DNA of 5,945 nt from Thermofilum sp. (GTDB taxonomy: Archaea > Thermoproteota > Thermoprotei > Thermofilales > Thermofilaceae): assembly GCA_020832965.1 (NCBI GenBank), contig JAJHRM010000167.1, forward strand, positions 1 to 5,945, written 5' to 3'. The position numbers and the translations under genes were made by a program. Below are positions 310 through 5,945 of the stretch, in pieces. The stretch's first letter is position 1. Each line of letters begins with the position of its first letter. The notes under the pieces are model-generated. The model ran no database searches. It saw nothing but the letters and a program-made list of their open reading frames with translations, and was not told the DNA's origin.

Positions 310-350
310 CTTTAGCAAAGTTTATAAACCTGTGTATCATATATGTGTTT
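310..350 (+). promoter_or_regulatory. Promoter of the RHH-methyltransferase operon, with two small dyads
   Basis: A strong archaeal TATA box, TTTATAAA, lies at 321-328. Its centre is about 26 bases upstream of the ATG at 351, so transcription should begin at or next to that ATG and give a leaderless mRNA. The box sits inside a perfect 10-bp palindrome (GTTTATAAAC, 320-329). A second dyad, CTTT-AGC-AAAG (310-320), abuts it over the expected BRE position. Ribbon-helix-helix proteins usually bind paired short dyads overlapping a promoter, so this is a plausible autoregulatory operator. That role is inference. Confidence 0.7.
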
Positions 351-605
351 ATGGTGTGTACTTTGAAACGCAGCCAGGAAAGAAGCAGAGTTAAGAGAGT
401 TCAGGTCACGTTCACCGGGGAACAGTGGAGTCTCATAGAACGCTTCAGAGGGGTTATGGGTAGCGACGATGCTGAAATAATTAGGAATATAGTGCTTGCA
501 TGGTTGTCTGAAAAGTCCATTGTCGCGTCAATCGCTAAGATGAGACTTGAAGGTGACAAGGATGAGAAGCGATCTCCGATTACGCGCGGGGGTGAAACGA
601 TATGA
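351..605 (+). CDS. Ribbon-helix-helix (CopG/Arc-type) DNA-binding protein, candidate regulator
   Basis: This 84-residue basic protein has a ribbon-helix-helix layout: a beta strand at residues 16-22 (RVQVTFT), helix 1 about 24-37 (EQWSLIERFRGVMG), then helix 2 about 39-53 (DDAEIIRNIVLAWLS), followed by a charged tail. Small crenarchaeal proteins of this type bind DNA as dimers, inserting the paired strands into the major groove. ATG 351 is chosen because the TATA box predicts transcription starting there. An in-frame GTG at 345 would add two residues, and GTG 354 is also possible. The stop overlaps the methyltransferase start as ATGA (602-605), so the two genes are translationally coupled. 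By position it could act like the controller protein of a restriction-modification system or as an autorepressor. No toxin partner is visible, so an antitoxin role is less likely. Confidence 0.82.
   Translation: MVCTLKRSQERSRVKRVQVTFTGEQWSLIERFRGVMGSDDAEIIRNIVLAWLSEKSIVASIAKMRLEGDKDEKRSPITRGGETI
588..601 (+). promoter_or_regulatory. Ribosome-binding site of the methyltransferase gene
   Basis: GGGGGTGA at 588-595 matches the anti-Shine-Dalgarno end of archaeal 16S rRNA. It lies six bases before ATG 602, inside the end of the upstream gene. It supports this start and coupled translation of the second gene in the operon. Confidence 0.65.
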
Positions 606-1819
606 AACGCTATACTGCAGTTGACCTCTTCTGCGGCGCAGGTGGGCTAACGCTAGGCTTCAAGCAGGCTGAATATAAAGGTTATGGCTTTAAAGCCGTC
701 GCAGCCGTTGACGTTTGGAAACCGGCTTGCGAGACCTATAAAACAAACCACCCCGAAGTTGAGGTTATCTGCGGAGATATCCGCGAAAACTGGGTTAAAC
801 AAAGACTTGCCACGGTAACGGGTGGGCACGTTGATGTTGTAATTGGCGGACCTCCATGCGAGGCGTTCAGCCTCGCAGGGAAGCGGGACCCCAATGACCC
901 CCGGGCTAGGTTGTTTTACGACTACGTAGACATTGTGGCTAAACTCCAGCCTTACATATTCGTGATGGAAAACGTTGAAGGGATTTTGACGATGTTGACA
1001 CTAAGGGAGGACATAGATTATGAAACAAAGAGGAAAGTCTTGGACGCTTTAAATAGGCTTCTAGAGTTGGATAAAGTTGGCAAGGCTAGGAGAGCTGCCC
1101 CCCAGTACATCATTAGGGAAAACCATGCTAGAAGTTCAGAAGAAGCAGAGCTAGTAAAATTCGTAAGAAAGTACCTAGTGACAGCTGCTGAGGCGATCAG
1201 ACAGGCGTTTAATAATATTGGCTACGACGTCGCGTGGAAAGTCCTAAACGCCCTAGATTATGGCGTTCCCCAAGAAAGGAAGAGGGTGTTCTTTATTGGC
1301 GCGAAGAAAGGTCTTGGCGTAGTCATTCACTTTCCGGAGAGAACTCACGCCCCTGAGGAGTCGATCACCATAGACGGGAGAAAGCTAGAGCGGTATAGAA
1401 CCTTGCGCGATGCAATAGGCGACCTGCCACCTCTAGAGCAAAGACCGGACGACGAGGTTTACGAGGGGGGTTTCTCCCCGATATACATGTCAAGGAATAG
1501 GTATAAGTCATGGGACGAGCCCAGCTACACAATACTCGCAAGTGCGAGACATGTACCTCTCCACCCAGACTCCCCAAGAATGATTAAAGTCGACAAAGAC
1601 AAATGGGCATTTGCCAACGAACCCGGCAAGAAACCTAGGAGGTTAAGTGTGCGGGAGTGTGCCAGGGTACAGACATTTCCTGACTGGTACAAGTTCGTGG
1701 GAAGCACGGTGGACAAATACGCGCTTATAGGTGACGCTGTCCCGCCACTATTAGCGAAGCGGGTAGCAGAAGCTACCCTAAGATCTCTAGTAGAAGCGGG
1801 GATCGAGCCTAGCTCCTAG
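602..1819 (+). CDS. DNA (cytosine-5-)-methyltransferase, M.HaeIII-like recognition region
   Basis: This 405-residue enzyme transfers a methyl group from S-adenosylmethionine to C5 of cytosine in a specific DNA site. The family motifs appear in order: I (DLFCGAGG, 8-15), IV with the nucleophile (GGPPCEAFS, Cys86), VI (ENV, 123-125), VIII (QERKR, 224-228), IX (RECARVQTFPD, 351-361) and X (GDAVP, 377-381). Motif IV has PCE where most bacterial enzymes have PCQ, and motif X has GDAVP rather than GNAVP. Residues 291-325, with MSRNR, DEPSYT, ASAR and PLHP, resemble the target-recognition region of M.HaeIII as I remember it (MSRNR, NEPAFT, ASGR, QLHP), suggesting a GGCC-like site. Residues about 131-200 form an insertion relative to M.HaeIII, which has about 330 residues. 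The 3' end overlaps the convergent glycosylase gene by 11 bases. The enzyme class is certain; the target site is inferred. Confidence 0.97.
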   Translation: MKRYTAVDLFCGAGGLTLGFKQAEYKGYGFKAVAAVDVWKPACETYKTNHPEVEVICGDIRENWVKQRLATVTGGHVDVVIGGPPCEAFSLAGKRDPNDPRARLFYDYVDIVAKLQPYIFVMENVEGILTMLTLREDIDYETKRKVLDALNRLLELDKVGKARRAAPQYIIRENHARSSEEAELVKFVRKYLVTAAEAIRQAFNNIGYDVAWKVLNALDYGVPQERKRVFFIGAKKGLGVVIHFPERTHAPEESITIDGRKLERYRTLRDAIGDLPPLEQRPDDEVYEGGFSPIYMSRNRYKSWDEPSYTILASARHVPLHPDSPRMIKVDKDKWAFANEPGKKPRRLSVRECARVQTFPDWYKFVGSTVDKYALIGDAVPPLLAKRVAEATLRSLVEAGIEPSS

Positions 1820-2477
1820 CATGTGCAAGATTATAGGAGCATTTTTCACTAAGCGGGCACTTATAGCACTTGGGTTTTTCCGTACACACTAGGGCTGAGA
1901 AGTCTATTATCCCCCAACCAAGGATCCTGCTTTCCATAGGATCTCTAGGCGTTGTTAGCCTTAGTATTTCGGCGATCTCTCGGTCAGAGACCTCCTTAGG
2001 ATATAGAAAGAACCTAGAGACAATCTTTCTGCTGTTGACATCTAGTAGGTAAGTAGGTACACCGCAAGCGAAGAGTAGAGTTGCCCTAGCTACGTAGTCG
2101 CCGACGCCTGGTAGGGAAATGAGATCCTCGTAACTACACGGCACGTTCCCGCCGTATTTTGTGAGCAAAGTAGTTGCAAGAGCTTTAAGTTGCCGAGCTC
2201 GCTGTCTCCAAAGTCCAAGAGGTCTGAGAATAAATGCTATCTCCTCTTCGCTCGCCTGAGCTAGATCTTGAACTGTTGGGAACTTCTTGAAGAACCCATG
2301 CCACACTTTCCTCACATGTCCAAAGTCTGTCTGCTGAAGCATCTTCTCCGTCACTAGCACCACGTAAGGATCCGAAGTCCGGCGCCAGGGAAAGTCTCGG
2401 AGATTTTCCCGGGTCCAGCTAAGGATCTTTTCCCGGAAGAATTCAACCTTCTCCTCGATATCTTTGCTCGAAAACAT
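1809..2477 (-). CDS. HhH-GPD mismatch DNA glycosylase with Fe-S cluster, Mig/TDG-like
   Basis: This 222-residue member of the MutY/endonuclease III superfamily excises a mispaired base from DNA. It has a MutY/Mig-type N-terminus (FPWRRTSDPY, 29-38) with the candidate catalytic Glu44 in TEKMLQQT, a helix-hairpin-helix LPGVGDY (122-128), catalytic Asp146 in LLDVN, and a C-terminal iron-sulphur cluster at Cys198, 204, 207 and 213. Tyr128 occupies the place of the endonuclease III lysine, as in the thymine-DNA glycosylase Mig.MthI, which indicates a monofunctional glycosylase. The length equals Mig (about 221), and the 8-oxoG-recognising C-terminal domain of MutY is absent. The likely job is removing T from the T:G pairs left by deaminated 5-methylcytosine, but A:G activity cannot be excluded. 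The cluster spacing is C-x5-C, one residue shorter than the usual C-x6-C. It is the second gene after the PLD nuclease, 15 bases downstream, with only a weak AGGGT as ribosome-binding site. Confidence 0.93.
   Translation of the reverse strand: MFSSKDIEEKVEFFREKILSWTRENLRDFPWRRTSDPYVVLVTEKMLQQTDFGHVRKVWHGFFKKFPTVQDLAQASEEEIAFILRPLGLWRQRARQLKALATTLLTKYGGNVPCSYEDLISLPGVGDYVARATLLFACGVPTYLLDVNSRKIVSRFFLYPKEVSDREIAEILRLTTPRDPMESRILGWGIIDFSALVCTEKPKCYKCPLSEKCSYNLAHARS
1842..1846 (+). terminator. Possible T-tract terminator of the methyltransferase operon
   Basis: Five T residues lie 23 bases past the methyltransferase stop. Archaeal RNA polymerase can terminate at short T runs without a hairpin. 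The run is short and lies within the opposing glycosylase gene, so the call is weak. Confidence 0.25.
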
Positions 2478-2492
2478 GTGAGGACCCTGGGG

Positions 2493-3914
2493 TCAGCGAA
2501 GTATCTCCACATCCCGCGAGAGCTGATGCCTCCATAAGTTGTCAAAGTGCTTCACAAACTTCTCAGTTAATTCCGCGCTCTCAACTATGACAAAGGCGTT
2601 TATCTCCGCAAATATGTCCTGTTTAACCACCTTAGTCTTTTGCGATCTAGTTTTTCTTGTTCTAACAGAATTTAGCCTCACTAAAGATTGCAGGTGTCTG
2701 TAAAGTTGTAACGCTGAGTTAACCGCGGTCTTCACGTAATCGACGCCCTGCTCTACTACGAGCTCCATAGCCCTCTCCCCCCATCCAAATTGTGTAGCAG
2801 TGAAATTAGCCGTCGATATAATGACCTTGTCATCCACAACTATGAACTTGTCGTGGACGAGTTTATTCACTCTCTGTTTAATGCCAGCGTAATCTAAGTG
2901 GCACTCAGCAAAAGCCGCCCTTCTCTTATCTGCTAAGCCGGCTGAGGAGACTTGCTTAAGAATTCTTGCGTCTAAGTTGGGGGCATTCCGCTTCTTCTCC
3001 GCAATGGCTTCTATCAATGTAGATCCTGCATATCCGTTGAAAGGTGCTATGTCATGTACATGTTGCCCGCAAACGAGGATCCTCTTCTCGGCCTCCATTA
3101 TGGTCTCAATAATTTTCTCCCTAGCAAAATGCGTTGAGCCCCTTCCGCGGATCTTTATAAAGGGACCTGTAAAGAACGCTGAGTTTGTAAACTCTTCAAC
3201 CCAGTCCTTTAACCCGTGCTTCCCTATGAAGACGAAGTCGGCAACCATTTGCAACTCGCGGGAGAGCGCCCCTATAAGGCTTGCGTATTTGCACCACGGA
3301 ACTGCTAAGGTCTCTAGCTCTTGGAAGAACCTCTTAAAAGCGTAGCTGAAGGGGCTGCTACAGGAGGGATCTTCCAGCACAACGGCGCTTTCAGAGTGGT
3401 AGGGGTCTCCCGGGGACATATTGCACGACGTTAAAATGAGTTTGCAACCGCCATCCTTGTACAAAATATACCCCGCCTTAACATGAAAACTGTAGCTTGC
3501 TTTAGCTTCCGCGTACTCTGCGCCGTGCCAAATGTACATATGCGGATAAATAAGGAAAATGAAGTTACTGCGTGTGCTAGGGTTTTTGCACAACTCTGCC
3601 ACATCATGATAAATCTGCCTGGCGTTTTCAATTTTCCTCTCGTCATATGCCGTTAGGGGGGTGCTGGTAACCACAACGTCGATTTGCATGGACCTAGCCA
3701 AACCCTTGAGCGTCTGGTAAAGCCTCGGGTTATTGAATAGGTATAGAGCAAGGTGGACCTCTCTAATATCGCTCTCCCTGGCCTTTAGCTCCTTTTCTAT
3801 CCCATAGTACACCTCAGGATTGCTTCCGACATCCGACCCGGTAGAGCTAGCTCTCCCAGGGACGACAGCGTAGATCCTAGTAGTAATGTCTTTAAACACC
3901 GTCGCTCCCACCAC
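2493..3914 (-). CDS. Phospholipase D-fold nuclease with two HKD half-sites, probable restriction endonuclease
   Basis: This 473-residue protein carries two PLD-like half domains in one chain. The first (about 34-200) has H144-x-K146, a displaced or missing Asp (Asp154 is the nearest), Asn165 and Glu175. The second (about 262-405) has a full HKD motif, H354-x-K356-x4-D361, followed by STANFTATQFG with Asn370. PLD-fold nucleases use the paired His residues to cut phosphodiester bonds without a metal. BfiI and NgoFVII are restriction enzymes of this superfamily, although they contribute one half per subunit. The residues between the halves (about 200-260) and the basic C-terminal tail (about 406-473, RTRKTRSQKTK) match no DNA-recognition domain I know. 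No signal peptide or membrane segment is seen, which argues against a phospholipase. Start GTG 3914 fits the promoter; the next in-frame ATG is at residue 76. It heads the leftward operon with the glycosylase. The fold is secure; the restriction role is inferred from the adjacent methyltransferase. Confidence 0.88.
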   Translation of the reverse strand: MVGATVFKDITTRIYAVVPGRASSTGSDVGSNPEVYYGIEKELKARESDIREVHLALYLFNNPRLYQTLKGLARSMQIDVVVTSTPLTAYDERKIENARQIYHDVAELCKNPSTRSNFIFLIYPHMYIWHGAEYAEAKASYSFHVKAGYILYKDGGCKLILTSCNMSPGDPYHSESAVVLEDPSCSSPFSYAFKRFFQELETLAVPWCKYASLIGALSRELQMVADFVFIGKHGLKDWVEEFTNSAFFTGPFIKIRGRGSTHFAREKIIETIMEAEKRILVCGQHVHDIAPFNGYAGSTLIEAIAEKKRNAPNLDARILKQVSSAGLADKRRAAFAECHLDYAGIKQRVNKLVHDKFIVVDDKVIISTANFTATQFGWGERAMELVVEQGVDYVKTAVNSALQLYRHLQSLVRLNSVRTRKTRSQKTKVVKQDIFAEINAFVIVESAELTEKFVKHFDNLWRHQLSRDVEILR

Positions 3915-4075: not shown

Positions 4076-4384
4076 ATGAACTTAGCTAATAACAGGGTTG
4101 TGCAGATGGCGGGGAGAGGTAGATGCTATATTTATGGCTCTATGCATATTAAAATGCCTAGGGAAGATATTCTCCGAGAACTACTCAGCAAAGTGGATTA
4201 TGTCCTATTAGAGGGGTTTAATGTAGGAGATTGGAGGTCGCTAATCAGACGGAAACCAAGTGTCACGCTAATAGTTCTAGGACTCTTAACATACTCCGTT
4301 ATCCTGGATTTGCATGTTAGAGTTATGGATAAGTGGTATAGGTTGCGGAGGAAACCACCGTTTAGGGGGATATGGAATGCGTGA
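4076..4384 (+). CDS. N-terminal part of a TraB/PrgY/Tiki-like protein (frame broken)
   Basis: This 102-residue ORF opens with IYGSMH (19-24), the first GX2H motif of the TraB/PrgY/GumN/Tiki superfamily, followed by a helix and KVDYVLLEGF (39-48), matching the family pattern of strand plus conserved Glu. Residues 63-80 are hydrophobic. The family includes the Tiki metalloproteases and the pheromone-shutdown protein PrgY; archaeal members are uncharacterised. The reading frame ends early at TGA 4382-4384, but a -1 step in the GGGGG run at 4365-4369 continues as RGDMECVRDYA into the next ORF, as expected for one gene. ATG 4076 has no ribosome-binding site. ATG 4106 (residue 11), preceded by AGGGTTG, gives a start nearer the domain and may be the real one. 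Confidence 0.6.
   Translation: MNLANNRVVQMAGRGRCYIYGSMHIKMPREDILRELLSKVDYVLLEGFNVGDWRSLIRRKPSVTLIVLGLLTYSVILDLHVRVMDKWYRLRRKPPFRGIWNA
4364..4374 (+). other. Frame junction at a G5 run joining the two TraB-like parts
   Basis: The first frame reads AGG GGG ATA TGG and stops ten bases past 4372. Slipping back one base after GGG 4367-4369 gives GAT ATG GAA, entering the second frame. The P-site GGG can re-pair perfectly with GGG at 4366-4368. The upstream frame of the second part is closed by TAG at 4363-4365, so the junction must lie in these few bases. The joined product would have 252 residues. One extra G in the run would also restore a single frame. Confidence 0.6.
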
Positions 4385-4833
4385 GAGACTACGCAGTGAA
4401 GTTGGACAAGAGGGTAGAGGCGGTCGATGCCAGTTTAGACGAGGTGTTTTCAGAGCAATTAGTAAACCTCAAGCCCACACTACAAAAATGCAGTAAAGTC
4501 TTTGCCATTTTCATTATCATCCTTAGCGCACTACTCCGCACATTACCCTATATGTATATGTTTTATACGTATGTAAATCCAATACCTTATCCATTTCTAC
4601 TACTCATGATAGTCCTCATTATGGTTACTATTCTAGTCATTCCCATCACAGTATGCCTTGCTGTATTCGTTGGAAACATCAATGAATTCAGAGACGCCAA
4701 GGTAGTGAAGAGGGCGAAAGAACTTATAGAGATGGGTTATAGCGTGCTAATCGTGAGAGGCAAAAAACATGTGCCATTCTTAACAAGCGAGCTACAAAAA
4801 CGCTCAATCGTCTGCGAAGTATATGAAACATAG
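4372..4833 (+). CDS. C-terminal part of a TraB/PrgY/Tiki-like membrane protein
   Basis: This 153-residue ORF overlaps the preceding one by 13 bases. It begins MECVRDYAVKLDKRVEAVDASL, the helix-strand unit that follows the Glu motif in TraB proteins. Two strongly hydrophobic segments follow (about 44-61 and 71-101), long enough to cross the membrane, with the second possibly crossing twice or forming a hairpin. The C-terminus has Arg107 in a helix (FRDAKVVKRAKELI) and then LIVRGKKHVP (126-135), containing the second GX2H motif (Gly130, His133). This motif completes the pair begun in the previous ORF. Independent translation from ATG 4372 would lack half the putative active site. No good ribosome-binding site is spaced for that ATG. 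Confidence 0.6.
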   Translation: MECVRDYAVKLDKRVEAVDASLDEVFSEQLVNLKPTLQKCSKVFAIFIIILSALLRTLPYMYMFYTYVNPIPYPFLLLMIVLIMVTILVIPITVCLAVFVGNINEFRDAKVVKRAKELIEMGYSVLIVRGKKHVPFLTSELQKRSIVCEVYET

Positions 4834-5160: not shown

Positions 5161-5622
5161 TTGCTTGTCGAGTTGTTACCTCGTGTCGGCTCGCCTAGAC
5201 CCCCGGTTGGCGTGCTTGGTCCGGGATTCACGCTGTGTGTTGTTAACGCTGGTAATGGACTGCGTGTTTTTCTAGAGTCTACTGTGAGCTCTGAGACTCT
5301 GTCGAGGTTTTACGGTGTTAAGAAGTCTAGCTATGAGGAACTACTTAGAGTACTTGGTGATGAAGTTTGGGTAGGTGAGGCAAGGCTTAAGCGGGAGTTC
5401 GACTTCTACCACACGGACATAATAGTGGCTGATATACCAGGCTTGGTTAACTCCCTTGAGAACAAGGGTGGCGTGTGCATCTCCGTCTCCCGAGACCCCG
5501 GGTTGAAAATGGTCTTCGCCTCTAAGGCCTCCTCGCTACTAAGCAAGGCTAGTAAATACCACAACAGTCTTTTAGACTACAGGGCAAGGAGCTACAGAAG
5601 AGGATGGGGAGGGTCCTCCTAG
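5161..5622 (+). CDS. Unidentified protein, possibly cut short by a frame break
   Basis: This 153-residue ORF starts at TTG with a well-spaced GGTGGAG. The translation is soluble-looking: GVLGPGFTLCVVNAGNGLRVFLES (17-40) suggests alternating strands, HTDIIVADIPGL (84-95) another strand and turn, and residues 118-140 a helix. No signal peptide, membrane segment or known motif is seen, and I do not recognise the family. The C-terminus RRGWGGSS is atypical. Across the G-rich tract 5606-5613 the -1 frame remains open as RVLLGKILVLAQSKSELK to TGA 5703-5705, so the real protein may be about 180 residues. It may be co-transcribed with the gene that follows. Confidence 0.55.
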   Translation: MLVELLPRVGSPRPPVGVLGPGFTLCVVNAGNGLRVFLESTVSSETLSRFYGVKKSSYEELLRVLGDEVWVGEARLKREFDFYHTDIIVADIPGLVNSLENKGGVCISVSRDPGLKMVFASKASSLLSKASKYHNSLLDYRARSYRRGWGGSS

Positions 5623-5705
5623 GCAAGATCCTGGTGTTAGCGCAGAGTAAGAGCGAGTTGAAGGTTATTGAGAAGCTCGCGGAGGCCTCTTGTAACGCCC
5701 GTTGA
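5604..5705 (+). CDS. Short frame, likely the continuation of the preceding gene
   Basis: ATG 5604 opens 33 residues, MGRVLLGKILVLAQSKSEL then KVIEKLAEASCNAR, overlapping the preceding ORF by 19 bases. The frame is already open from 5556. The sequence looks like a genuine helical C-terminus, but its ATG has no spaced ribosome-binding site (GAGG abuts it). It is more likely the 3' end of the gene beginning at 5161, reached by a -1 shift or one missing base in the G-rich tract. The stop overlaps a possible TTG start as TTGA (5702-5705), the pattern of coupled genes, which supports this frame being real. Confidence 0.35.
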   Translation: MGRVLLGKILVLAQSKSELKVIEKLAEASCNAR

Positions 5706-5722
5706 AGTGGCAGAGGAGTAGA

Positions 5723-5945
5723 GTGAGGAAGCTGAGCGAGCTCACGGAGTTACTTAAACCCCCGCAAACAAGCTTCTGGTGGAGGCTACTTGGCGAGAGA
5801 AATAGAATCGTGTTCACGGAGGATCTCCTACCAGAGGTAGTTAAGCTCCCAGACCCCTCGCTACACAGAATAGGCTTTGTTAGGGGTTCACCACTGCCAC
5901 TAGTAATCCCAGCTAGGACTGGGGAGAAGACGTTTAGAATAGGCG
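5723..5945 (+). CDS. N-terminal part of an unidentified protein (runs off the right edge)
   Basis: An open frame runs from here to the end of the window, showing 74 residues beginning VRKLSELTELLKPP, then SFWWRLLGERNR and a Pro-rich part (SPLPLVIPARTGEK). GTG 5723 is chosen because GAGGAG (5713-5718) lies just upstream. TTG 5702, overlapping the upstream stop as TTGA, is the alternative and adds seven residues. No domain is recognisable in the visible part. Its close spacing to the preceding frame suggests one operon. Confidence 0.6.
   Translation, partial: MRKLSELTELLKPPQTSFWWRLLGERNRIVFTEDLLPEVVKLPDPSLHRIGFVRGSPLPLVIPARTGEKTFRIG

What the first reader, a model, noticed from the sequence alone, without database searches (positions are those of the whole stretch)
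351..3914. A restriction-modification-like island with its own mismatch repair enzyme in a thermophile
Four genes form a closed module: RHH DNA-binding protein, C5-cytosine methyltransferase, PLD-fold nuclease and a Mig-like HhH-GPD glycosylase. 5-methylcytosine deaminates to thymine quickly at high temperature, so a C5 enzyme is costly for a hyperthermophile. A T:G glycosylase in the same module would offset that. The known precedent is Mig.MthI with a GGCC system on a Methanothermobacter plasmid. Here the presumed endonuclease is of the unrelated PLD fold and an RHH regulator is added, so this looks like an independent or shuffled assembly of the same idea.
Basis: partly seen in the sequence, partly recalled or inferred. 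Interest (0 to 1): 0.85.

Follow-up and report, generated by a model that had tools for sequence, protein, structure and literature searches.

The report
Restriction cassette with built-in mismatch repair
Four neighbouring genes look like a mobile DNA-defence cassette, probably from an archaeon: an enzyme that methylates cytosines, a repair enzyme that should fix the mutations this methylation causes, an unusual cutter of the phospholipase D fold and a small regulator, parts that occur elsewhere in other combinations.

Summary
Four genes lie at 351-3914 as two convergent pairs: RHH-like protein + C5 methyltransferase (MTase), and PLD nuclease + Mig-like glycosylase. The MTase has the target domain of M.HaeIII/M.MthTI (GGCC, recalled). 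The glycosylase groups with Mig, not MutY. The PLD protein is a two-HKD enzyme with intact catalytic residues but no B3 domain found, unlike known PLD restriction enzymes. The PLD + MTase + glycosylase triad recurs in a Methanomethylicia MAG and a viral contig; contig-length matches among metagenome proteins far exceed chance. Plasmid pCALKR01 already combines a different PLD-type endonuclease, C5 MTase, Mig-like gene and CopG protein. So: a shuffled Type II-like restriction cassette with a new branch of PLD nuclease, a new variant of a known kind. Not shown: that the PLD protein is the restriction nuclease, that GGCC is the target, T:G activity, a thermophilic host.

The parts
321..328 (+). 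TATA-box-like TTTATAAA 23-30 nt upstream of ATG 351 (would fit a leaderless archaeal transcript)
   Evidence: read directly from the sequence; inspection only, not tested
351..605 (+). RHH-like small protein, likely regulator, overlapping the MTase start by 4 nt
   Evidence: ORF; four nearest relatives (65-77% identity) all directly upstream of C5 MTases in Mig-type loci, three with the same 4-nt overlap and one 11 nt away; fold not confirmed
602..1819 (+). C5-cytosine DNA methyltransferase, M.HaeIII/M.MthTI-type target domain, with an insert of about 60 aa that L003's MTase and M.MthTI lack
   Evidence: PF00145 E 2.4e-74; best PDB relative M.HaeIII E 3e-55; first-ranked plasmid relative M.MthTI, 36.9%; alignment with intact PC, ENV and QxRxR motifs
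1809..2477 (-). Mig-like HhH-GPD [4Fe-4S] glycosylase, predicted T:G / U:G mismatch glycosylase
   Evidence: PDB 1kea Mig.MthI E 3e-44 against best MutY E 6e-32; Tyr128, Asp146 and four Cys conserved; groups with Mig-like proteins, not MutY
2493..3914 (-). Two-HKD phospholipase-D-fold protein, presumed restriction nuclease

Best explanation
A mobile Type II-like restriction-modification cassette with its own repair enzyme. The MTase methylates a cytosine in GGCC or a closely related site. The PLD protein cuts DNA lacking that mark. The Mig-like glycosylase removes the thymine left when 5-methylcytosine deaminates opposite G, so that the site is repaired by base excision. The RHH-like protein, translationally coupled to the MTase, sets the balance of expression. 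Shown: gene content, intact catalytic residues, conserved linkage of MTase, PLD protein and glycosylase, Mig rather than MutY affinity, RHH-MTase association in other loci. Inferred: target GGCC, PLD protein as the restriction nuclease, T:G activity, role of the RHH-like protein.
For: Triad present in two distant loci: L002 (Methanomethylicia MAG: MTase, OB protein, glycosylase, PLD) and L003 (IMG/VR contig: MTase, glycosylase, PLD in one direction). Shared longest-contig lengths: PLD-MTase 13, PLD-glycosylase 7, glycosylase-MTase 14, against shift-control means 0.56, 0.59, 1.14 (maxima 3, 4, 5); 0 of 77 distinct lengths of the more distant, mostly MutY-like hits match. PLD and MTase identities co-vary (rho 0.40, 14 of 2000 permutations as high). 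Of 28 further Mig-like loci of Thermoproteota 18 carry a C5 MTase within 6 kb; none was found in 471 kb of 30 control loci. Some of these pairs have a recognisable restriction nuclease beside them (EcoRII-C in L099; PADLOC REase_II for L089, with six BLAST relatives in other loci), so by analogy the PLD protein fills that slot. GGCC is the most depleted tetranucleotide in the window, L002 and L003; L002's contig is far below ten other contigs of its genome (0.16 against 0.57) and L003 below the rest of its virus contig (0.04 against 0.41).
Against: The PLD protein shows no B3 or other target-recognition domain, whereas BfiI reads DNA with a B3-like domain (PMC4081073, passages). Its nearest folds include PLD3, whose entry titles speak of 5' exonuclease-mediated nucleic acid degradation and ssDNA, and lipid enzymes. 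L003 has another possible nuclease gene upstream (270 aa) and L002 a DGQHR protein. 10 of the 28 Mig-like loci show no C5 MTase in reach. GGCC is depleted in many Thermoproteota anyway (lowest word in 8 of 20 control loci), and the window's own depletion is not significant against that background (P about 0.06). GGTC excess expected from deamination is seen in L002 only. The glycosylase pocket has F/Y and W where Mig.MthI has A50 and L187.
Confidence: 0.6

Rival explanations
1. The PLD protein is an accessory nuclease, not the sequence-specific restriction enzyme: a DrmC-like or PLD3-like end/ssDNA nuclease that degrades DNA opened by something else, or that processes ends during repair of the glycosylase's abasic sites.
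For: Beyond generic PLD models only DrmC models show a weak but recurrent similarity (E 6e-5 in PADLOC, 8.7e-5 in NCBIfam, far below the NCBIfam cut-off). The fold is nearest to complete two-lobed PLDs, among them PLD3/PLD4 crystallised with ssDNA. In the window the PLD gene is 15 nt upstream of the glycosylase gene. DrmC is described as non-essential in DISARM (PMC9142583, passages).
Against: No other nuclease candidate is common to the window, L002 and L003, and a conserved MTase plus glycosylase without a restriction nuclease would have no obvious defence role. No DrmA or DrmB was found among the window ORFs scanned. In L002 PLD and glycosylase are not in one operon.
Confidence: 0.27
2. The glycosylase is a MutY-type A:G enzyme and its place beside a C5 MTase says nothing about deamination.
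For: NCBIfam's best model is mutY, at about half its cut-off (147.4 against 286.5 bits); sources name relatives A/G-specific adenine glycosylase; the QQT motif is MutY-like.
Against: Mig.MthI is the best PDB relative. MutY's V45/Q182 determinants (PMC2714593, passages) are F/W here; F29 matches Mig F27; there is no MutY C-terminal domain. The tree separates 10 MutY-like rows from 53 others including Mig.MthI and the window (SH-aLRT 99). The Mig-like group is linked to C5 MTases far above controls.
Confidence: 0.05
3. Chance neighbours in a defence island, not one system.
For: Gene order and orientation differ between window, L002 and L003; no relative of the RHH-like gene was found in L002 or L003.
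Against: Linkage far above controls.
Confidence: 0.05

Closest known systems
MthTI system with Mig.MthI on plasmid pFV1 (Methanothermobacter)
   Same: HaeIII-type C5 MTase (36.9% identity, same target-domain motif) and Mig glycosylase 1.4 kb away
   Different: Endonuclease annotated NgoPII-family; no PLD or RHH-like relative found by my models; Mig pocket A50/L187 against F52/W188 here
Plasmid pCALKR01 of Caldicellulosiruptor acetigenus (hot-spring source)
   Same: PLD-type endonuclease, C5 MTase, Mig-like glycosylase and CopG RHH protein in one stretch of about 3 kb
   Different: Its nuclease matches NgoFVII's B3-like domain (PF20731) and PADLOC REase_II and shows no profile similarity to the window's PLD family; its MTase has another target domain
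Mig-type cassettes of Thermoproteota (e.g. L086, L088, L091, L092; L089 probably Pa-MIG's locus) and of Thermus plasmids
   Same: C5 MTase plus Mig-like glycosylase; L086, L088, L091, L092 have a close relative of the RHH-like protein directly before the MTase
   Different: Different MTase subfamily where compared and no PLD relative; other nucleases
PLD restriction enzymes BfiI and NgoFVII
   Same: HxK catalytic motifs of the PLD superfamily
   Different: BfiI is a homodimer with C-terminal B3-like DNA-binding domains and one active site at the interface (PMC4081073, passages); here one chain carries both HKD halves and no B3 domain was found
DISARM (type with DrmMII and DrmC)
   Same: MTase scores 622 bits against a PADLOC DrmMII model; weak PLD similarity to DrmC
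   Different: No DrmA or DrmB among the window ORFs scanned; the PLD protein is about twice the length of the DrmC models, with two HKDs; a glycosylase is present

Membership tests
Type II restriction-modification system | MTase with intact catalytic motifs | tested here: met
   P85-C86, E123-N124-V125, Q224/R226/R228 invariant with M.MthTI
Type II restriction-modification system | conserved linkage of MTase and a nuclease | tested here: met
   L002, L003 and 13 shared contig lengths among 58 PLD clusters
Type II restriction-modification system | nuclease cuts the unmethylated target and is blocked by methylation | not testable with these tools
   needs biochemistry
M.HaeIII-type (GGCC) MTase | target-recognition motif of the HaeIII/MthTI group | tested here: met
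   MSRNR...W...S.TI.A..RH..HP shared by window, L002, L003, M.MthTI
M.HaeIII-type (GGCC) MTase | GGCC is the methylated site | tested here: inconclusive
   GGCC depleted in all three triad loci but also in many controls
Mig / HhH thymine glycosylase | HhH-GPD fold, [4Fe-4S] cysteines, catalytic Tyr and Asp, no MutY C-terminal domain | tested here: met
   PF00730; Y128, D146, C198/C204/C207/C213 invariant in four aligned; 222 aa
Mig / HhH thymine glycosylase | lacks MutY's adenine determinants V45 and Q182 | tested here: met
   F52 and W188; of 12 longer MutY-like rows with V at the first place 10 have Q at the second, the others G and S
Mig / HhH thymine glycosylase | Mig.MthI's own residues A50 and L187 | tested here: inconclusive
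   F/W instead; other MTase-linked relatives also vary at both places, so not shown to define the family
Mig / HhH thymine glycosylase | removes T from T:G | not testable with these tools
   needs an assay
BfiI/NgoFVII-type PLD endonuclease | HxK active-site motif | tested here: met
   two HxK motifs invariant in 29 of 29 aligned
BfiI/NgoFVII-type PLD endonuclease | B3-like DNA-binding domain | tested here: not met
   no PF20731 match at E 0.1, while pCALKR01's protein matches it; two-lobed PLD folds align over nearly the whole chain
BfiI/NgoFVII-type PLD endonuclease | one HKD per chain | tested here: not met
   two HKDs per chain
DISARM | DrmA helicase and DrmB beside MTase and DrmC | tested here: not met
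   no such gene among the eight window ORFs scanned; the sequence ends 2 kb beyond the PLD gene, so a more distant partner is not excluded
Ribbon-helix-helix regulator | RHH fold | tested here: inconclusive
   no library hit; model with strand-helix-helix order at pLDDT 51

The most novel reading that the evidence does not exclude
The two-HKD PLD protein founds a new class of restriction nuclease that has no target-recognition domain of its own. It takes its specificity from the partner MTase or from the glycosylase: for example the glycosylase makes an abasic site at an improperly marked target and the PLD protein turns it into a break. Repair and restriction would then be two outcomes of one base-excision step.
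Probability: 0.12. Interest if true: 0.88.

Novelty: new variant of a known kind. Interest (0 to 1): 0.6.

Why it matters
It suggests that carrying a thymine glycosylase next to a C5 methyltransferase is a repeated solution rather than a curiosity of one plasmid: it is seen with an EcoRII-C protein, a PADLOC-recognised type II enzyme family, NgoPII- and NgoFVII-type nucleases and now a two-HKD PLD protein. That makes testable the old question of how organisms living hot can afford 5-methylcytosine, and adds a candidate new branch of PLD-type (elsewhere metal-independent) restriction nucleases.

Tried and rejected
Window genome: none held, so genome-wide GGCC statistics for the host could not be made. 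Scans with the single PLD or MTase sequence found nothing; the PLD alignment found one locus in each of two collections; P0056 found nothing; the 270-aa gene and the glycosylase of L003 found only their own contig; A5 gave ten distant viral MTase loci, none with a Mig-like or PLD gene by my models (0 of 10 for each), and A6 no PLD relative. PLD alignment in 398 Thermoproteota genomes: one full-length relative, which is L002's own genome (E 3.5e-189); the three other matches are partial (E 2e-5 to 2e-4). In 40 genomes of its class again only that one. The family is rare and patchy there. P0056 on plasmids and phages, and the window's PLD protein on plasmids: no match.

GGCC depletion as proof of target: weakened by my own control. 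11 of 20 control loci have a ratio under 0.7 (median 0.63) and 8 of 20 have GGCC as the most depleted word. Three of these controls (L027, L028, L029: 0.49, 0.41, 0.12) come from genomes that carry a relative of this MTase, so they are not clean; without them 8 of 17 are under 0.7, median 0.71. Three controls from L002's own class have 0.62, 0.51 and 0.48 (L035, L045, L046), so L002's genome (0.57) is ordinary for its class and only its cassette contig stands out. GGTC excess, expected from deamination, is seen in L002 (1.39) but not in the window (0.94) or L003 (0.89). The within-virus contrast compares two overlapping stretches of one contig.

DISARM: considered because of the DrmMII hit, rejected for lack of DrmA/B in the window. 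MutY: rejected as above. RHH structure: uninformative; a PDB sequence search with the RHH-like protein gave only one hit at E 0.75. The 50 rows shown of the Foldseek and VIA-align lists hold no BfiI; that is no evidence of absence. The tree is a quick one with long branches; within the Mig-like side the order is unsure.

Selection effects: the ten plasmid neighbourhoods of glycosylase hits that I opened (of 96 records with a match, 25 listed) were picked by me, mostly thermophiles and halophiles; 9 of 10 have an annotated C5 MTase within about 2.1 kb (pFV1), the Gloeothece one none. The 28 Thermoproteota loci are all matches at E <= 1e-30 other than L002's; several lie on short contigs, so 18 of 28 may be too low; some MTase hits are partial or frame-broken (L088, L095, L097, L099). 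In L113 the stop-to-stop frame of the glycosylase runs back over the MTase, but its match (6001-6612) lies behind the MTase. L112 has a second, partial glycosylase-like ORF. Contig fingerprints compare only the longest contig length of each protein cluster, from the best 120 glycosylase and 120 MTase hits and all 58 PLD hits. The RHH model was built from the window and the four best relatives, so its finding those four loci is by construction; what counts is where the independent search placed them.
Full report
WHAT IS THERE. Reading the window gives four genes in two convergent pairs: an RHH-like gene (351-605, +) overlapping by 4 nt a C5 methyltransferase gene (602-1819, +); and, on the other strand, a PLD-fold gene (2493-3914) followed after 15 nt by a glycosylase gene (1809-2477), whose end overlaps the MTase's end by 11 nt. 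A TATA-like TTTATAAA lies 23-30 nt before ATG 351 (inspection only). Four downstream ORFs that I scanned (4076-4381, 4372-4830, 5161-5619, 5702-5944) match no Pfam family; one has two weak PHROGs hits. No tRNA was found. The organism is unknown and no genome is held. Relatives named by sources include Infirmifilum sp. and, more distantly, a Clostridiales bacterium, Helarchaeota, Bathyarchaeia and Methanomethylicaceae, so an archaeon is likely but a thermophilic host is inference.

THE METHYLTRANSFERASE. Pfam PF00145 at 2.4e-74. Among solved structures M.HaeIII is by far the best (3.1e-55; the next other enzyme 4e-27), and among plasmids M.MthTI of pFV1 ranks first. The block MSRNR...W...S.TI.A..RH..HP...M.KV, the target-recognition part, is shared by window, L002, L003 and M.MthTI; M.HaeIII and M.MthTI read GGCC (recalled). 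Window and L002 have an extra insert of about 60 residues that L003 and M.MthTI lack. PADLOC's best model is a DrmMII model, 622 bits.

THE GLYCOSYLASE. Mig.MthI (1kea) is the best solved relative, 3.2e-44, against 6e-32 for the best MutY. PMC2714593 (passages read) names V45 and Q182 of E. coli MutY as adenine determinants, A50 and L187 as the Mig.MthI counterparts, and Mig F27 (MutY L22) and Y126 as thymine-related. The window has F52, W188, F29 and Y128 at these places. In its close family (P0059-P0098) 40 of 40 have W; of the 39 that cover the other place 38 have F or Y and P0090 has S. Of the 12 longer MutY-like proteins examined with V at that place, 10 also have Q, P0105 has G and P0138 has S. 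So the window's type is neither MutY's nor exactly Mig.MthI's pocket. A quick tree of 63 rows puts 10 MutY-like rows on one side (SH-aLRT 99) and the 53 others, with Mig.MthI and the window, on the other; the window's family and that of L002/L003 form one group of 13 (92).

CONSERVED LINKAGE. With the PLD alignment, one locus was found among genomes and one among viral contigs. L002 (Methanomethylicia MAG) has MTase, a small OB-fold gene and glycosylase in one operon, with the PLD gene converging. L003 (a contig that IMG/VR holds as viral; one gene matches the phage-type YQBQ family) has MTase, glycosylase and PLD genes in a row. For metagenome proteins no DNA could be fetched, so I compared the longest-contig length given for each cluster: 13 lengths are shared by PLD and MTase lists, 7 by PLD and glycosylase, 14 by glycosylase and MTase, against means of 0.56, 0.59 and 1.14 (maxima 3, 4, 5) when one list is shifted by 1 to 200 bases either way. 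The matches fall in the Mig-like part of the glycosylase list (P0059-P0098: 14 of 40 lengths in the MTase list, 7 in the PLD list); of the 77 distinct lengths of P0101-P0178 none match. Three lengths (4916, 6172, 6890) occur in all three lists. This is indirect evidence, one contig at a time. Over 16 loci, PLD and MTase identities co-vary (Spearman 0.40; 14 of 2000 permutations as high), a moderate signal.

THE WIDER PATTERN. A search of 398 Thermoproteota genomes with the window's glycosylase gave 26 genomes at E <= 1e-30. I fetched up to 6 kb on each side of the 28 places other than L002's: 18 of 28 have a C5 MTase in reach and 10 do not, against none in 471 kb of 30 control loci; no PLD relative was seen in the 28. 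Neighbours include a 343-aa protein that scores 384 bits with a PADLOC type II restriction enzyme (L089), six BLAST relatives of it in other loci, an EcoRII-C protein (L099) and two related 270-284-aa proteins with a restriction-like motif by eye and no family hit (L086, L091). L089's genome has a contig of 2,222,430 bases, which I recall as the size of Pyrobaculum aerophilum, home of Pa-MIG, described as acting on U/G and T/G (PMC5069365, passages); if so, Pa-MIG itself sits beside a C5 MTase. On plasmids, 9 of 10 opened neighbourhoods of glycosylase hits have a C5 MTase nearby (pFV1), a biased choice. Most telling is pCALKR01: NgoFVII-type PLD endonuclease, C5 MTase, Mig-like gene, CopG protein. 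Conversely, ten viral loci with related MTases show no Mig-like gene (0 of 10).

THE RHH-LIKE PROTEIN. In 349 Thermoproteota genomes 26 have a relative at E <= 1e-4. The four best (65-77% identity) all lie directly upstream of a C5 MTase in the Mig-type loci L086, L088, L091, L092: three overlap the MTase start by 4 nt, exactly as in the window, and one lies 11 nt away. None of the other 22 (37-53% identity) has a C5 MTase within the fetched flanks of up to 1.5 kb, and none of 30 control loci holds a relative. The MTases of L086, L091 and L092 belong to a different subfamily (27-28% identical to the window's over about 250 residues; L088's is frame-broken and was not compared) and work with other nucleases. 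So the window combines an RHH-like part known from one kind of cassette with the MTase-PLD-glycosylase triad of another. No relative was found in L002 or L003 (L002 has an unrelated RHH_1 protein 3.7 kb beyond the MTase), so it is optional.

TARGET. GGCC is the most depleted of 256 tetranucleotides in the window (4 found, 13.9 expected), L002 (9, 56.5) and L003 (1, 27.2). Controls temper this: in 20 Thermoproteota loci ratios run from 0.12 to 1.13 and GGCC is lowest in 8; three of the low ones are from genomes with a relative of this MTase. Against their own surroundings L002 (0.16 against 0.57 for ten other contigs; Poisson 1.4e-6) and L003 (0.04 against 0.41; 1.7e-4) remain low; the window alone does not reach significance (P about 0.06).

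MECHANISM. The best reading is a Type II-like cassette: MTase marks GGCC or a near relative, the PLD protein cuts unmarked DNA, the glycosylase repairs deaminated 5mC, the RHH-like protein regulates. The weakest step is the PLD protein as site-specific cutter, hence 0.6. The main rival makes it an accessory nuclease (0.27). Everything about activity is inference.

NOVELTY. Mig beside a C5 system is known from MthTI (Horst and Fritz 1996, cited in PMC2714593 and PMC5069365; the paper itself is not held and was not read). The listings of my ten paper searches show no paper on a PLD + C5 MTase + Mig cassette; they cover only open-licence PMC text and few word choices. I rate it a new variant of a known kind: the nuclease branch and this combination appear new, the principle is not.

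Noticed in passing
L003 7221-8033: A 270-aa gene 0.3 kb upstream of the MTase has a restriction-like motif by eye; its relative on a cyanobacterial plasmid (51.8% identity) lies next to a D12 N6-adenine methyltransferase. It could be a second nuclease of that locus.
   Followed up: partly
L002 5489-7513: A 674-aa DGQHR protein (NCBIfam DGQHR 140.6 bits; DpdB/DndB-like) is the gene just upstream of the MTase, with an N-terminal part that resembles a nuclease by eye.
   Followed up: no
L002 3826-4131 and L097 375-719: A small OB-fold gene (PF21473 for L002) sits between MTase and glycosylase of L002; a look-alike by eye is near the glycosylase of L097.
   Followed up: no
L087 81-3851, L089 1961-5821, L106 2067-5987, L112 6611-9895: A BLAST-linked family of 1095-1307-aa proteins recurs beside C5 MTase-glycosylase pairs; the only member scanned (L106) has a helicase C-terminal domain. 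Possibly larger defence systems that also carry a Mig-like enzyme.
   Followed up: no
window 602-1819 and 1809-2477 (PADLOC PDLC02650, PDLC03398): PADLOC's best models file this MTase under DISARM DrmMII and the glycosylase under 'Type II nicking endonuclease'; automatic defence annotation could mislabel such cassettes.
   Followed up: partly
Thermoproteota control loci L027-L046: GGCC is under-represented in many Thermoproteota (11 of 20 loci under 0.7 of expectation), also where no relative of this methyltransferase was found at E 1e-40 (8 of 17).
   Followed up: partly
glycosylase codons for F52 and W188 (gene 1809-2477, -): The close family of this glycosylase has bulky aromatic residues where MutY has V/Q and Mig.MthI A/L; its substrate range may differ from Mig.
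   Followed up: partly
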